Shown: one piece after another, positions 334 to 7,553 of the stretch
How positions within the stretch are numbered: the stretch's first letter is position 1
Layout: every line of letters starts with the position of its first letter
Origin: JBDRED01 sp043820025 [NCBI: Elusimicrobiota bacterium]
Lineage (GTDB): Bacteria; RUG730; JBDRED01
Direction of reading: 5' to 3'
Assembly: GCA_043820025.1 (NCBI GenBank)
Contig: JBDRED010000047.1
Location: forward strand, 1-7,709
DNA: 7,709 nucleotides
Program-made: the position numbers and the translations under genes
Notes under the pieces: generated by a model
What the model saw: only the letters and a program-made list of their open reading frames with translations
Database searches by the model: none
What the model was told of the DNA's origin: nothing

Positions 334-2766
334 TTGAAGGCCATCACAAAAAAAGTATTTGCAATTACACTTTTGTTTCTATGCCTATCTTTATACTTGT
401 CTAAGTTAGACTCATCAAAAAGCATTAATAATAATACCGTAGCTTTTGAAAGTATATTCGCGAATAAAAACGGCAGAGCCAGAGACTATTTCATGCTGTT
501 AAATAATATTAATGGTTTAGATCCTCTTATTAAAAAATCTTTACTGCTCTATGTTTTAAACGGAGAACAAAGCCTAATGAATTCAGAAATAGCGGAAGAT
601 GCGCAAAATTTGCGTAGAAAAAGAAATTGGCATTATGAATTAAGGGACGACCCCCTCAAAAAACGCAGATTAGAACCGGGTGCGAATACACTTGAGGAAT
701 TTGGAATTTCTCAGCATGAGTTTGACGGATTAACAAATGAAGTACAATCTGCTCTTGAAAAAATACGCGAACATTTATTAATAGATAGAGGACGCGCATT
801 GACATCTTTAGAGCAGATACATTTAGAAAAAATTATAAAGGTATTAAAGATAAATCATTCTGAAAAGGTTATAAAGATTATAGAGGAATATATTGATACT
901 CAAATTAAAATAAGAGACCTGGAATCTGATTACAAAACAAAAGCAATTTCTTTAAATACGATAACGAGTCTAACTGATTTGGCGCCAGGGCAGGACGAAT
1001 ATCCTTTTGGAAAATTTAAATTAAACTTTAAAAATCATATGCTTTCAGTTTGTTTAAAAGCGGATGGTAAAACATATTTATATCGTTTGCCAAAAGAAAT
1101 AGGTATGTATAGAAAAGTGAGACGCGTAAAACCAAGTCATTCTAAAGAAGAATTTTTGTTGTGCGAAAGATTTAATGGCACAACAGTCATATTTAATAAA
1201 CAAGGGAGTCAAATCGGCAGTTATGAAATTGCAATTGAGGATATCAACGGTTACTTTAAAAAAGACGATTTAATTGTGTTGTTTACAAAAAATATGAGAT
1301 ATCCAAAAATAATTTTTGGCAATAGGATGGATATTTATATATCAGATTATTATCAAGAATCTTTTTATGAAGACAGGCTTGGGTTTTTTTCACGTGCAAG
1401 AATTAATGAAATGCTAAAAAGAATGCCTGATTTTACGGCAATTAAAGAGAGTTATTTGAGTAACATTATAAGTATTCACAGAGACGATCTTTATTACTAT
1501 TTCAGTACTGAAAGTAATGTTTGGCAGTTATTTTCACATATGAATCATGCTTTATTTTCAAAGTTAAGTTATAATTTTCTCTTGTTCATTAATTCGCTTG
1601 ATGAACAAGCGCTTAAAATTATATTGATGAGATTAATGGCGTTCTCTGAGCCGGATTTTCTTAATATTGCAAACAATATTGGAAGAATGTTTCTAGTTAA
1701 TGAGATTGCAGTCGAAGATTTGAGGGTTAGAAGTTTTGCGCATATGGTAAATTATTTTTTAAGAACTTTGTTATTGGCGCGTCAATATAAAAGAAATCTT
1801 TCTGAATTAATTTGCGGATTTGAAGAAAGCCTTTCCCGATTTGGCGTTATTTCTGCACTTGCGACATTCCATTATAATATCCACAAGGAAGTCTGTGGGT
1901 ATATAGACTATAATTATGACTCATGTCTTTACGCTTTTTTAGAACAAATGGGCAGTGTTTATATTGCTTATGATAATATTTTATTGGAATTGGAGGAATT
2001 AACAAGAGAGCTGTTTCCAGATAAATGGCAAGAGTGCATGGAAATGGCTGCGGCTGGAATCAACCCAAGCATAGCGCAGTACGACAGTGGAGCATACAGA
2101 GCGGATATTAAGACCAAAATGGAGAAATTGTGGAGTAAAGAACGAAAGCTCTATCATTTAAGCTTTTTAAGATATGGCGTAAGTCTCCCTGCTGAATCCG
2201 GATTATCTTTGATGAAGATTAAAACACGACTTTCTGACGAAGAAAGATTGTACGCAGTCTTAGATACAGCAGAAAACGGTATAAAAGTAAGCTTGAAAAA
2301 TTTAGTGGATGGAGTAATGAAATCCGATAACTGGTCATCATTATTGCATGACGATTTTCATTATACAGCTCCTGATCAAATAACATTATATAAAGATTTT
2401 AAAGAATTAAATTGGGGATATATTCAAACCGAGGAGGCATTTCTGCGTGCTGCCAATTTTTTTGGCGTTTATGATGAAAGAAAACTTTCAAAGCTGAAAA
2501 AAGTTTGGGCTGTTTCAAAGAAAATTGAGCTGGTTAGGGAACATGTTAAAGCATTGGAAAAAGATAAAAAAAGTGGAGTAGTATTTTATCCGTGGGGTGA
2601 TTTTGTAACGTACGCCGAGGGAAGCCGGAATGTGTGGCGTATATTAAGAGGTTTAATGAGAGCCGTAAATATTAATAATCTCGATGACATTTGTTATATT
2701 TATTGTTATTTCAGTTGTTGTAATGTTTCTTTTGCTTCTCTTGAGAGGCTTGCGTTTGCAGTATAA
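334..2766 (+). CDS. Large exported protein of unknown function; C-terminus suspect
   Basis: I do not recognise a family for this 810-residue product. The TTG start at 334 is chosen because AAGGGA (321-326) lies 7 bases upstream and the N-terminus then reads as a signal peptide or anchor: Lys at 2, 6 and 7, then a hydrophobic run over about residues 8-23. Cys17 sits in LFLC, which is not a good lipobox. Residues 90-200 are charged and probably helical. Residues about 215-335 look like alternating beta strands, and the rest is mainly helical. Base composition is uneven: lines 1261-1320 and 1561-1620 have 14 and 16 G+C in 60, but 2041-2100 has 32. The last 27 residues (784-810) contain five Cys within 11 residues and do not resemble the rest. 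A neighbouring frame encodes a membrane segment at that place, so a frameshift near 2669-2700 is suspected. It is probably envelope-located; its role is unknown. Confidence 0.75.
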   Translation: MKAITKKVFAITLLFLCLSLYLSKLDSSKSINNNTVAFESIFANKNGRARDYFMLLNNINGLDPLIKKSLLLYVLNGEQSLMNSEIAEDAQNLRRKRNWHYELRDDPLKKRRLEPGANTLEEFGISQHEFDGLTNEVQSALEKIREHLLIDRGRALTSLEQIHLEKIIKVLKINHSEKVIKIIEEYIDTQIKIRDLESDYKTKAISLNTITSLTDLAPGQDEYPFGKFKLNFKNHMLSVCLKADGKTYLYRLPKEIGMYRKVRRVKPSHSKEEFLLCERFNGTTVIFNKQGSQIGSYEIAIEDINGYFKKDDLIVLFTKNMRYPKIIFGNRMDIYISDYYQESFYEDRLGFFSRARINEMLKRMPDFTAIKESYLSNIISIHRDDLYYYFSTESNVWQLFSHMNHALFSKLSYNFLLFINSLDEQALKIILMRLMAFSEPDFLNIANNIGRMFLVNEIAVEDLRVRSFAHMVNYFLRTLLLARQYKRNLSELICGFEESLSRFGVISALATFHYNIHKEVCGYIDYNYDSCLYAFLEQMGSVYIAYDNILLELEELTRELFPDKWQECMEMAAAGINPSIAQYDSGAYRADIKTKMEKLWSKERKLYHLSFLRYGVSLPAESGLSLMKIKTRLSDEERLYAVLDTAENGIKVSLKNLVDGVMKSDNWSSLLHDDFHYTAPDQITLYKDFKELNWGYIQTEEAFLRAANFFGVYDERKLSKLKKVWAVSKKIELVREHVKALEKDKKSGVVFYPWGDFVTYAEGSRNVWRILRGLMRAVNINNLDDICYIYCYFSCCNVSFASLERLAFAV

Positions 2767-4935: not shown

Positions 4936-5571
4936 ATGATCAGAGGCGTTTATTTAGTTTCAGGGCTGAGGTTTCATAAAACATTCGATGAATATTTAAA
5001 CGCTGTCGAGGCTGCGCTAAAAGCCGGGATAAAAATTTTCCAACTGAGAGTAAAGGATGAATTAAAAGATAAGGATCATATCTTTCTTGCGCATCGTGTT
5101 CGAGAGCTGACAAAAAAGTATAATGCGTTATTTATTATAAATGATAGGCCTGATATTGCTTTATTATGCGGCGCTGACGGGCTTCATCTGGGGCCTAAAG
5201 ATATGAGCGTGCATGACGCCAGGCAGATACTTGACAAGGAAAAGATTATTGGTTTGTCCTGCCATTCAGAGGAAGATGTAATGAATGCATTAAATCATGA
5301 TATCACTTATTTATCTGTTGGCCCGGTATTTAAGACTGATTCTAAAAAGAGTCCTGATAAGATCGTTGGCCTGGACCTTATTAATTATGCTTTAGAAAAT
5401 ACGCATCTGCCTGTTGTAGCTATTGGCGGTATAGGATTAAAAGAAATACCAAATGTCCTCTCAACCGGCGTAAAATCAGTTGGCGTGATAAGAGCTGTAA
5501 TGGAGCAAAAAAATATCTATAACGCTGTAAAAGAATATATTTCGATATTTGATCAAAATCTATTAAAATAA
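4936..5571 (+). CDS. thiE: Thiamine-phosphate synthase ThiE
   Basis: ThiE joins hydroxymethylpyrimidine pyrophosphate to thiazole phosphate, giving thiamine phosphate. The 211 residues are close to family size. Seen in order: YLVSG at the N-terminus, FQLRVKD (35-41), FIINDR (66-71), GADGLHLGPKDM (79-90), IIGLSCHSEED (104-114), LSVGPVFKTDSKK (126-138) and VVAIGGI (160-166). Asp70 and Asp89 match the family's metal-binding residues. Ser108 and the Thr134-Ser136-Lys137 loop match phosphate contacts. The FKTDSKK loop also recalls TenI, the related thiazole tautomerase, but the IINDR and LGPKDM motifs favour ThiE. ATG 4936 has AAGGAG (4924-4929) 6 bases upstream. It follows thiH after an 81-base gap with two hairpins and is the last thi gene of the cluster. 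Confidence 0.9.
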   Translation: MIRGVYLVSGLRFHKTFDEYLNAVEAALKAGIKIFQLRVKDELKDKDHIFLAHRVRELTKKYNALFIINDRPDIALLCGADGLHLGPKDMSVHDARQILDKEKIIGLSCHSEEDVMNALNHDITYLSVGPVFKTDSKKSPDKIVGLDLINYALENTHLPVVAIGGIGLKEIPNVLSTGVKSVGVIRAVMEQKNIYNAVKEYISIFDQNLLK

Positions 5572-5576
5572 TAGAA

Positions 5577-5585
5577 TTATCCACA
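5577..5585 (+). promoter_or_regulatory. Perfect DnaA-box 9-mer, copy 1
   Basis: TTATCCACA is an exact match to the strong bacterial DnaA-binding consensus TTATNCACA. It begins five bases after the thiE stop codon and is followed by very AT-rich sequence (5586-5605). Binding by DnaA is inferred from the motif alone. Confidence 0.5.
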
Positions 5586-5616
5586 TATATCAATAATTTA
5601 AAAAACGCTAAAACAT

Positions 5617-5639
5617 GTTGAAATATAAGCTGTTTCAAC
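5617..5639 (+). repeat. Hairpin between the two DnaA boxes
   Basis: GTTGAAA (5617-5623) pairs perfectly with TTTCAAC (5633-5639) around a 9-base loop. It lies about midway between the two DnaA boxes. The following bases run GTTTCTTCTTG, too mixed to be a good terminator tail, though a weak terminator for the thi genes is possible. Confidence 0.45.
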
Positions 5640-5647
5640 GTTTCTTC

Positions 5648-5676
5648 TTGTATTATCCACAAAAGTTTAGTAAAAT
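5648..5676 (+). promoter_or_regulatory. Candidate promoter for nnrE with an embedded DnaA box
   Basis: TTGTAT (5648-5653, three of six to the -35 consensus) and TAAAAT (5671-5676, five of six to the -10 consensus) are separated by exactly 17 bases. The second DnaA box (5653-5661) overlaps the last -35 base and fills the first half of the spacer, where bound DnaA would be expected to hinder RNA polymerase. The transcript would begin about 75-80 bases before nnrE. Confidence 0.35.
5653..5661 (+). promoter_or_regulatory. Perfect DnaA-box 9-mer, copy 2
   Basis: TTATCCACA is identical to the copy at 5577-5585, in the same orientation, 76 bases start to start. It is followed by TTTAGTAAAATAG, AT-rich and containing TAG and TAA triplets, loosely like the DnaA-trio of some origins. 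No dnaA, dnaN, rpmH or similar origin-linked gene lies in the window. Confidence 0.5.
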
Positions 5677-5682
5677 AGCCTA

Positions 5683-5745
5683 AAGTTACATTTTTTTAGT
5701 GGCACAGCGCTGTTCAAAGATAGAAATTTCAGCTGCAAGTAACTT
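5683..5745 (+). promoter_or_regulatory. Inverted repeats in the nnrE leader
   Basis: AAGTTAC (5683-5689) can pair with GTAACTT (5739-5745), enclosing a 10-base palindrome ACAGCGCTGT (5704-5713). A GCTG/CAGC pairing is also possible inside. The outer stem ends five bases before the nnrE Shine-Dalgarno GGAGGG (5751-5756), so it could affect translation. ACAGCGCTGT could instead be an operator for a dimeric repressor. I match it to no known riboswitch. Confidence 0.25.
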
Positions 5746-5761
5746 AAAAAGGAGGGTTTAA

Positions 5762-6442
5762 ATGACTGCAAATAAAAAGATCCTAACAGCAAATGAGATG
5801 CGCATATTTGATGATTGGGCGATAAATAGTATAGGGATCCCGGGTATTATCCTCATGGAAAACGCAGGAAGAGCAGTTGCTGATGAGGTTTATAACTCAT
5901 ATTTTGCCAAGAAGTCAGGCTATTCTCAGGTGGATGTTTTTTGCGGTATGGGAAATAATGGGGGTGATGGCCTGGTTGCTGCCAGGCATCTTCTGATACG
6001 TGATATTAAGGTGAAGGTTTATGTTGTCGGCGGAATATCCGGCTTAAGCGCAGATTCTGAGCTAAATTTTAGAATACTTCGCAAGATAGGAGCTGTAGTA
6101 ACTCCAATATTGACAGAAAAGGACTTGTCCCGCGTGAAGCTTGGCAAAAAGGATGTTATTGTTGACGCGCTGTTTGGAATAGGGCTTAATCGTGATATTT
6201 ACGGAATACATAAAGATACCATTGAATTTATGAATAGCGCTAAATTTCCAATAATATCTGTTGATGTGCCATCCGGATTAAACGCGAATACCGGCGAGGA
6301 CTGGGGCGCATGCATCCATGCAAAGAAAACGGTTACCTTTTCTTTCCCTAAAAGAGGATTTCAGGTAAAGTCAGGCAAAGAAGCTGTTGGTAAGGTGATT
6401 ATTGCGGATATCGGCTCATTTAAGAAAAAAATAACCAGATAA
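5762..6442 (+). CDS. nnrE: NAD(P)H-hydrate epimerase (YjeF N-terminal domain)
   Basis: This enzyme interconverts the R and S forms of hydrated NAD(P)H (NADHX and NADPHX), damaged cofactors that a partner dehydratase (NnrD) then restores. Seen in order: LTANEM (8-13), MENAGRAVAD (32-41), the nucleotide-site glycines GNNGGDG (64-70) followed by LVAARHL, VDALFGIGLNR (134-144), VDVPSGLNANTG (167-178) with the conserved Asp168, KKTVTFSFPKRG (188-199) and the closing IADIG. At 226 residues it is the epimerase domain alone. In many bacteria it is fused to the dehydratase domain, which is not in the window. ATG 5762 has GGAGGG (5751-5756) 5 bases upstream. It probably has its own promoter near 5648-5676 and may be co-transcribed with pilT, 61 bases downstream. 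Confidence 0.92.
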   Translation: MTANKKILTANEMRIFDDWAINSIGIPGIILMENAGRAVADEVYNSYFAKKSGYSQVDVFCGMGNNGGDGLVAARHLLIRDIKVKVYVVGGISGLSADSELNFRILRKIGAVVTPILTEKDLSRVKLGKKDVIVDALFGIGLNRDIYGIHKDTIEFMNSAKFPIISVDVPSGLNANTGEDWGACIHAKKTVTFSFPKRGFQVKSGKEAVGKVIIADIGSFKKKITR

Positions 6443-6503: not shown

Positions 6504-7553
6504 GTGGAAATAAATAAAATTATCAGTATTGGCGTTGATATGGGCGCCTCTGATGTTCATATTTCTCCAACAAGAGTTCCAATGATAAGGGTTCTTGGCG
6601 AATTAAAACCTATCGAAGGTTTAGAAAAATTAACTAAGACAACTGCAAAAAATTTAATTTATAGTATGTTAAGCGAAGAGCAGAAAAAGATATTTGAAAC
6701 CAGTTCCGAGCTAGACTGCTCATACGAGCTTAATGGTGTTGGAAGATTCAGGGTAAATGTTTTTATGCAAAAAGACGGCATTGGAGCTGTATTAAGAATA
6801 ATACCAACCAATATTCCAAGCACTGACGATTTAAAACTATCTGATCCAATAAAGGATTTAGCAAAATTGAATAAAGGGCTGGTGCTTGTTACAGGCCCAA
6901 CCGGCAGTGGAAAATCCACAACTCTGGCATCTCTTATAAACACTATAAATAAACAAAGAAAGGACCATATTTTAACTATTGAGGATCCTATTGAATATGT
7001 TTATGAACAGGAACAATGCGTGATTACTCAGCGCGAGGTTGGCGGTCAAACTGAAACATTTGCCTCTGCTCTGAAGCATGCTCTCAGGCAGGATCCGGAT
7101 GTTATTCTTGTAGGCGAGCTTCGCGACCTTGAGACAATACAAGCCGCTTTAACACTTGCTGAAACAGGCCATGTGGTATTTGCCACACTGCATACCACTG
7201 ACGCTGCTCAGACAATTGATAGAGTTATAGATGTGTTTCCGCCTCATCAGCAGCAGCAAATAAGAGTTCTTTTATCAAATACCCTAAAAGCTGTTGTGGC
7301 GCAAAGGCTTTTATTAACAGCTGATGGAAAGTCACGGGTCGCGGTTAGGGAAGTGATGATAGTGACGCCTGCTATTGCAAATCTTATTAGAGAAGGAAAG
7401 ACTCATCAGGTTTATAGCGCTATTGAAACCGGCAAGGTTTTTGGAATGATAAGTATGGACAAGGCTGTAAGTGAACTCTTTAAGTCAGGAGTAATATCAA
7501 AGGAGACAGCGCAGAGTATTACGAATAAGCCGGGCGGCCAGGCTCAGGTATAA
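6504..7553 (+). CDS. pilT: Twitching motility ATPase PilT
   Basis: PilT is the hexameric cytoplasmic ATPase that drives type IV pilus retraction. The 349 residues match the family's usual length. Domains in order: an N-terminal PAS-like region (about 1-105) with GASDVHIS and RFRVN, then the secretion-ATPase core with Walker A GPTGSGKST (131-139), Asp box TIEDPIEYV (158-166), Walker B DPDVILVGELRD (197-208, catalytic Glu205) and His box TGHVVFATLHT (221-231). The C-terminal AIANLIRE (290-297) corresponds to the PilT hallmark AIRNLIRE with its first Arg replaced by Ala. This motif separates PilT from PilB/GspE assembly ATPases; PilU is an alternative. GTG 6504 is chosen because AGGAGG (6494-6499) lies 4 bases upstream and the protein starts as usual for the family. 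No other pilus gene lies in the window. Confidence 0.95.
   Translation: MEINKIISIGVDMGASDVHISPTRVPMIRVLGELKPIEGLEKLTKTTAKNLIYSMLSEEQKKIFETSSELDCSYELNGVGRFRVNVFMQKDGIGAVLRIIPTNIPSTDDLKLSDPIKDLAKLNKGLVLVTGPTGSGKSTTLASLINTINKQRKDHILTIEDPIEYVYEQEQCVITQREVGGQTETFASALKHALRQDPDVILVGELRDLETIQAALTLAETGHVVFATLHTTDAAQTIDRVIDVFPPHQQQQIRVLLSNTLKAVVAQRLLLTADGKSRVAVREVMIVTPAIANLIREGKTHQVYSAIETGKVFGMISMDKAVSELFKSGVISKETAQSITNKPGGQAQV

What the first reader, a model, noticed from the sequence alone, without database searches (positions are those of the whole stretch)
5572..5761. Two perfect DnaA boxes in the thiE-nnrE gap
TTATCCACA occurs exactly twice here (5577 and 5653), same strand, 76 bases apart, flanked by AT-rich DNA and a perfect hairpin. 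By rough base composition one such 9-mer is expected about 0.1 times in both strands of the whole window, so two in 190 bases is unlikely by chance. It could be a replication origin away from dnaA, a DnaA-titrating site, or a DnaA-controlled promoter.
Basis: partly seen in the sequence, partly recalled or inferred. Interest (0 to 1): 0.6.

Follow-up and report, generated by a model that had tools for sequence, protein, structure and literature searches.

The report
Two DnaA boxes upstream of nnrE
Two perfect copies of the bacterial replication-initiator binding word sit in a gene gap; they are probably a minor DnaA-binding site or a coincidence, and the evidence argues against a replication origin.

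Summary
The two exact TTATCCACA copies are real (5577-5585 and 5653-5661, + strand, 76 bases apart). About 0.07-0.16 are expected in the window, and no same-strand pair within 200 bases arose in 2 x 3000 simulated windows. An origin is not supported: GC skew is +0.19 left and +0.18 right of the gap, no origin gene is among the six main ORFs, and no weaker box lies around the pair. As calibration I searched the same spaced pair in 641 genomes of three phyla: 39 have it; the reversed control hit 1. Of 11 loci with only two exact boxes, 9 lie at dnaA/dnaN. So a lone pair can mark an origin, but beside dnaA/dnaN, which are missing here. All 57 loci have at least 3 box-like words at up to two mismatches; the window has 2. 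Best reading: an accessory DnaA site, possibly at a weak nnrE promoter, p about 0.45; coincidence is nearly as likely (0.40). No relative with thiE-nnrE was found, so conservation is untested. Side result: a conserved DnaA-box cluster upstream of a pal-like gene in Elusimicrobiota, not at the GC-skew switch in two contigs checked.

The parts
5577..5585 (+). DnaA box 1, exact TTATCCACA, 5 bases after the thiE stop codon
5615..5641 (+). hairpin between the boxes (11 pairs, two of them G-U, loop of 5), followed by a U-rich stretch; possible weak terminator of the thi genes
   Evidence: not called by the terminator scan, which asks for three G-C pairs
5653..5661 (+). DnaA box 2, exact TTATCCACA
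5648..5676 (+). weak promoter-like pair TTGTAT-17-TAAAAT; box 2 overlaps the last base of the first hexamer and the spacer (3 of 6 and 5 of 6 consensus bases, counted by eye; below the threshold)
   Evidence: hexamers listed; inference
5750..5755 (+). Shine-Dalgarno-like AGGAGG of nnrE
4936..5571 (+). thiE, thiamine phosphate synthase, upstream neighbour
   Evidence: TIGR00693 above cut-off
5762..6442 (+). nnrE, NAD(P)H-hydrate epimerase (stand-alone YjeF_N), downstream neighbour
   Evidence: TIGR00197 above cut-off
6504..7553 (+). pilT, type IV pilus retraction ATPase, 61 bases after nnrE
   Evidence: TIGR01420 above cut-off

Best explanation
The pair is an accessory, non-origin DnaA-binding site. 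DnaA binds the two high-affinity boxes (inferred). Box 2 lies in the spacer of a weak promoter-like sequence ahead of nnrE and pilT, so bound DnaA would repress or time transcription of nnrE-pilT, and the pair would also hold a little DnaA away from the origin. Shown: both exact boxes, their place, and the absence of origin features in the window. Inferred: that this organism's DnaA reads TTATCCACA, that it binds here, and that expression changes.
For: Two exact boxes where 0.07-0.16 are expected; no same-strand pair within 200 bases in 2 x 3000 simulations. In the 80 pilT-side loci of other genomes the word occurs 13 times in 1.15 Mb, 2 times in the 336 kb of the 24 AT-rich ones, so it is a sparse word. 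Both boxes are in one intergenic gap on the strand of the downstream gene, the second ending 100 bases before the nnrE start. The same pattern (TTATCCACA N53-83 TTATCCACA) is found in 28 of 149 genomes of the phylum of G001 (Elusimicrobiota), 3 of 198 of the phylum of G002 (Nitrospirota) and 8 of 294 of the phylum of G320 (Planctomycetota); the reversed control hit 1 of the 641, and a scrambled pair 0 of 149. So such pairs are as a rule DnaA sites rather than noise. Non-origin clusters exist: 24 of the 30 Elusimicrobiota pair loci that I read lie upstream of a pal-like gene, and in the two contigs checked that site shows no skew switch.
Against: No weaker boxes: only the two exact ones at up to 2 mismatches in 301 bases (null mean 1.1), while each of 57 loci with the pair has 3 or more; but L202 and L203, both at dnaA-dnaN, have just 3, so the gap to the window is small. 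Of the 11 loci with only two exact boxes, 9 are at dnaA/dnaN. The other two are L141, inside an ORF, and L159, in a gap with four boxes at one mismatch or less. So a lone intergenic pair away from dnaA has no parallel among the 57 loci read. In AT-rich pilT-side loci the word is not enriched: 2 copies, against a mean of 3.6 for 1629 letter permutations. None of 60 nnrE upstream stretches from distant genomes holds a box. The promoter is weak. The gap lacks the element of the pal-type clusters (best score 0.2, rank 69 in the window; training 9.7-22.9).
Confidence: 0.45

Rival explanations
1. Coincidence: two unrelated copies of a 9-mer that the eye picks out because it is famous.
For: No weaker box around the pair. 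No conservation could be shown (0 of 60 distant nnrE upstreams). The reversed control pattern turns up once in 641 genomes, a rate like that of pairs away from both dnaA/dnaN and a larger cluster: L141 and L159, 2 of the 57 loci read, one of them inside a gene. The finding was picked after reading many possible motifs in an unknown number of windows.
Against: A same-strand pair this close did not arise in 2 x 3000 simulated windows. Both boxes fall in the same 190-base gap.
Confidence: 0.4
2. A chromosomal replication origin away from dnaA.
For: Exact pairs at this spacing mark real origins elsewhere: in G144 the pair in the dnaA-dnaN gap lies 154 bases from the GC-skew minimum of the 400 kb read. 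That site has only two exact boxes (L137). The gap is AT-rich.
Against: GC skew is +0.188 over 5.6 kb to the left and +0.182 over 1.9 kb to the right. The left value exceeds that of all 29 comparison sites (highest 0.113), and an origin should turn the left side towards negative. Fourfold sites lean the other way (left G 96, C 81; right G 39, C 52, summed by me). No dnaA, dnaN or gidA among the six main ORFs (ORFs under 60 aa, such as rpmH, were not looked for). No weaker boxes. The skew test over so short a stretch has limited power: two dnaA-linked pairs, L238 and L239, show differences of only 0.008 and 0.020 at this geometry, and the ranges of dnaA-linked and pal-side sites overlap.
Confidence: 0.08
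3. Binding word of another regulator, or a piece of 5' leader or terminator structure, unrelated to DnaA.
For: The hairpin between the boxes folds better than most shuffles (z -2.18, 8 of 200 shuffles as good). nnrE has a 100-base stretch after box 2.
Against: No Rfam family at gathering score and only chance-level hits below it (best E 2.3). The leader does not fold better than shuffles (z 1.08 and 0.64).
Confidence: 0.07

Closest known systems
Dispersed DnaA boxes and DnaA-controlled promoters (E. coli dnaA, mioC, nrdAB; recalled)
   Same: few exact boxes in a gap upstream of a gene, near a promoter
   Different: no binding or regulation shown here; genes are nnrE and pilT; promoter match is weak
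DnaA titration and conversion loci (datA, DARS1, DARS2; abstract and passages of PMC12371093 seen)
   Same: non-origin DnaA-binding DNA
   Different: those hold more boxes and an IHF site (recalled); here two boxes and no weaker ones
Bacterial oriC
   Same: exact TTATCCACA boxes in an AT-rich gap
   Different: no skew switch, no weaker boxes, no origin genes found
pal-upstream DnaA-box cluster of Elusimicrobiota (found here, 24 of L133-L162)
   Same: an exact same-strand pair about 75-85 bases apart ahead of a gene on the same strand
   Different: that cluster has 5-6 boxes at one mismatch or less and a TGTAGAGTAAAA-like element, both lacking in the window

Membership tests
chromosomal origin (oriC) | cluster of DnaA boxes | tested here: not met
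   two exact boxes and none weaker within 301 bases; the 57 loci with the pair have 3-14 box-like words, the dnaA-dnaN loci L202 and L203 only 3
chromosomal origin (oriC) | switch of GC skew at the site | tested here: not met
   +0.188 left, +0.182 right, over 7.7 kb only
chromosomal origin (oriC) | neighbouring origin genes (dnaA, dnaN, gidA and others) | tested here: not met
   thiG, thiH, thiE, nnrE, pilT and an 810-aa ORF without family (six ORFs searched, none under 60 aa)
chromosomal origin (oriC) | unwinding element and DnaA-trio, helicase loading | not testable with these tools
   gap is 28.9% GC; AT-richness alone says little
DnaA-controlled promoter | box overlapping or next to a promoter | tested here: inconclusive
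   box 2 in the spacer of TTGTAT-17-TAAAAT, a sub-threshold promoter
DnaA-controlled promoter | DnaA binds and changes transcription | not testable with these tools
   needs experiment
DnaA-controlled promoter | boxes conserved upstream of the same gene | tested here: inconclusive
   0 of 60 nnrE upstreams hold an exact box, but all are distant (full-length identity 47% or less) and none keeps thiE
datA/DARS-like titration locus | dense box cluster with IHF site (recalled definition) | tested here: not met
   two boxes only; IHF site not scored
Elusimicrobiota pal-upstream cluster | five or six boxes with a TGTAGAGTAAAA-like element next to pal | tested here: not met
   no pal gene among the six ORFs searched

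The most novel reading that the evidence does not exclude
DnaA directly times a nicotinamide-repair and pilus-retraction gene pair (nnrE-pilT) in an uncultured bacterium, tying NADH repair or twitching to the replication cycle.
Probability: 0.08. Interest if true: 0.45.

Novelty: new member of a known kind. Interest (0 to 1): 0.2.

Why it matters
If DnaA binds here it adds one more accessory DnaA site, in a lineage that I could not place, next to genes not known to me as DnaA targets. The calibration is of more general use: in the three phyla searched an exact TTATCCACA pair at this spacing is nearly always at a DnaA-box cluster or at dnaA/dnaN, so the pattern helps to find such sites in fragmented genomes; and it exposed a conserved cluster in Elusimicrobiota that does not seem to be the origin.

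Tried and rejected
Relatives: nnrE in genome contigs gave none. A pilT tree puts the window with a MAG labelled Elusimicrobia HGW-2 and one labelled Planctomycetota (98/94), on long branches; the phylum of the window stays open. Omnitrophota was my own recalled guess; I reached no genome that I know to belong to it. Whole-genome searches: phylum of G002 and of G005, the same phylum (100 and 61 genomes, overlapping, thiE), phylum of G001 (198, nnrE), phylum of G009 and of G320, the same phylum (59 and 392, overlapping, nnrE, the latter with E up to 1e-36), the small phylum of G007 (16, pilT), and 9 plus 23 single genomes (nnrE). Best full-length identities: nnrE 47%, thiE about 42%, pilT 61%; partial nnrE pieces reach 53%. 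Viral contigs with nnrE, thiG, pilT and thiH: nothing.

Rejected: riboswitch or known RNA; Elusimicrobiota-type cluster element; sigma-54 promoter at TGGCAC (near 5700), looked at by eye, because the -12 part does not fit. Papers: searches (Omnitrophota, DnaA, replication origin, any two; TTATCCACA, DnaA box, intergenic; Omnitrophota, genome, thiamine; DnaA box with Elusimicrob: 2 papers; DnaA box clusters, transcription factor, intergenic: 1 paper). I saw passages, abstract among them, of PMC12371093 and PMC2275245; otherwise listings and starts of abstracts only.

Rows not read: of 36 matches, 30 came with a locus and were classified; two of the other six (G224:C10, G155:C7) were read later (pal-like gene beside them) and are not in the 30; four rows (second registers at G248:C15 and G242:C1, plus G248:C16 and G196:C5) were not classified. 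All 27 matches came with loci and had their boxes counted; gene identity was looked up by Pfam for a part of them and by tblastn with one Elusimicrobiota DnaA, DnaN and Pal for all. Several of the 57 loci are overlapping registers of one site (L194-L198 in G807; L211 and L213-L217 in G411; L204, L207 and L210 in G354), so loci are not independent. The 11 sites were chosen by me and left out L141 and L154; one search counts all 57.

Full report
Observation. The window holds exactly two perfect TTATCCACA words, at 5577-5585 and 5653-5661, both on the + strand and 76 bases apart; three further places differ by one base, at 1877, 3873 and 5847, and the total of five at up to one mismatch is reached by 16 of 200 shuffles. 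The expected number of exact copies in the window is 0.07 to 0.16, depending on the background model. In simulated windows two or more copies came up in 0.33% (order 1) and 1.3% (order 3), and a same-strand pair within 200 bases in none of 3000 for each model. The hairpin between the boxes is an 11-pair stem with two G-U pairs and a perfect 7-base core.

Surroundings. The six main ORFs of the window read rightward: an 810-aa ORF without family, thiG, thiH (376.3 bits, just under the NCBIfam cut-off of 380), thiE, nnrE, pilT. Box 1 starts 5 bases after the thiE stop codon is complete. The hairpin and a U-rich stretch follow, then box 2, which lies in the spacer of a weak promoter-like pair, and 100 bases after box 2 the nnrE ATG, preceded by AGGAGG. 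No Rfam family matches.

Is it an origin? GC skew is +0.188 to the left and +0.182 to the right. At fourfold sites the left side has 96 G and 81 C, the right 39 G and 52 C (my sums over genes), which is the reverse of an origin but a small sample. To see what such a test can show, I measured the same geometry at 29 sites with a box pair. L238-L244 are dnaA- or dnaN-linked pairs, with right-minus-left differences from +0.008 to +0.139. Twenty pal-side clusters of Elusimicrobiota gave -0.055 to +0.063. L245 and L246, with neither neighbour, gave +0.044 and -0.020. The window gives -0.010. The ranges overlap, so the difference alone decides little; but the left skew of the window is higher than at any of the 29 sites. 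The test is weak over 7.7 kb and points away from an origin.

Calibration of the pair. I searched TTATCCACA N53-83 TTATCCACA in 149 genomes of the phylum of G001, 198 of the phylum of G002 and 294 of the phylum of G320 (Elusimicrobiota, Nitrospirota and Planctomycetota, names inferred by me from record titles of G001, G002, G005 and G009). It occurs in 28, 3 and 8 of them. The built-in reversed control hit one genome in all (G771), and a scrambled pair hit 0 of 149. Of the 30 Elusimicrobiota loci read, 24 have a pal-like gene beside the boxes (one of these proteins checked by Pfam: OmpA family; the others by tblastn with it), 4 have dnaA with or without dnaN, and 2 have neither. Of all 57 loci, 11 hold only two exact boxes within 250 bases of the centre: L137, L141, L154, L159, L160, L191, L192, L199, L201, L202, L203. 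Nine of these are at dnaA or dnaN. The other two are L141, inside a long ORF, and L159, with two more boxes at one mismatch. In G144 the pair between dnaA and dnaN lies 154 bases from the GC-skew minimum of the 400 kb read, so a lone exact pair can mark a real origin.

What sets the window apart. All 57 loci have at least 3 words with up to two mismatches in 301 bases (3 at L141, L202 and L203; up to 14); the window has just the two exact ones, with 1.1 expected by chance. The margin over L202 and L203, which are at dnaA-dnaN, is one word. The window has no dnaA or dnaN among its main ORFs. It therefore resembles neither the dnaA/dnaN pairs nor the pal-side clusters, whose element is also missing. 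In the 80 pilT-side loci of other genomes the word occurs 13 times in 1.15 Mb where 4.35 are expected, with four pairs within 300 bases, all of them 11 bases apart; but in the 24 AT-rich loci it occurs twice, below the mean of 3.6 for permuted words.

Conservation. I found no relative that keeps thiE next to nnrE: 0 of 60 nnrE loci hold thiE in their flanks of up to 1.5 kb (some cut by contig ends), and one (L119, phylum of G320) has pilT after nnrE. None of the 60 nnrE upstream stretches (up to 400 bases) has an exact box. All are distant, so this neither supports nor refutes conservation.

Verdict. An accessory DnaA site, perhaps controlling nnrE-pilT, is the most likely single reading (0.45). 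Coincidence is nearly as likely (0.40), because the pair lacks weaker boxes, has no shown conservation and was picked from many possible motifs. An origin is unlikely (0.08). The steps from sequence to binding and from binding to regulation are inferred.

Side result. In Elusimicrobiota a cluster of 5-6 boxes (one mismatch or less) lies upstream of a pal-like gene in 24 of 30 loci read. A TGTAGAGTAAAA-like element stands just before the second box of the searched pair in all 24: 3 to 5 bases from the end of a 15-base frame that I anchored on variants of AGAGTA, so its presence is in part by construction, its fixed distance is not. In G144 the pal-side cluster (7 exact boxes) lies in a 279 kb contig of even negative skew, while the skew minimum of the other contig read is at dnaA-dnaN; in G131 the 397 kb around it has even positive skew. 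So it seems to be a non-origin DnaA site in the two genomes checked. One paper search for 'DnaA box' with 'Elusimicrob' listed two papers, neither about it by title; that is no proof that it is unknown.

Noticed in passing
L133-L136, L138-L140, L142-L153, L155-L158, L161: Elusimicrobiota: conserved cluster of 5-6 DnaA boxes (one mismatch or less) with a TGTAGAGTAAAA-like element, upstream of a pal-like (OmpA family) gene on the same strand, 24 of 30 loci read; in G144 it is not at the GC-skew minimum found, which lies at dnaA-dnaN. A candidate non-origin DnaA control or titration site.
   Followed up: partly
L193-L198 (G807:C56): TTATCCACA pairs repeated in tandem with about 64-base units near a RusA-family ORF in an AT-rich contig of the phylum of G002; looks like a repeated DnaA-box array.
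   Followed up: no
L208, L211, L213-L217 (G411:C18): Locus in the phylum of G320 with 10-11 exact DnaA boxes in 500 bases at six of these seven registers (5 at L208), built of repeated inverted boxes; dnaN lies several kb away, at L205 of the same contig.
   Followed up: no
L010, L011, L012, L014: Four Elusimicrobia pilT-side loci each hold two exact TTATCCACA 11 bases apart, 7 kb or so from pilT.
   Followed up: no
window 334-2766: 810-aa ORF with a signal-like N-terminus (by eye) and no Pfam or NCBIfam match.
   Followed up: no
L119 (G320:C99): nnrE followed by pilT on the same strand also in a genome of the phylum of G320, 1 of 36 nnrE loci examined.
   Followed up: no
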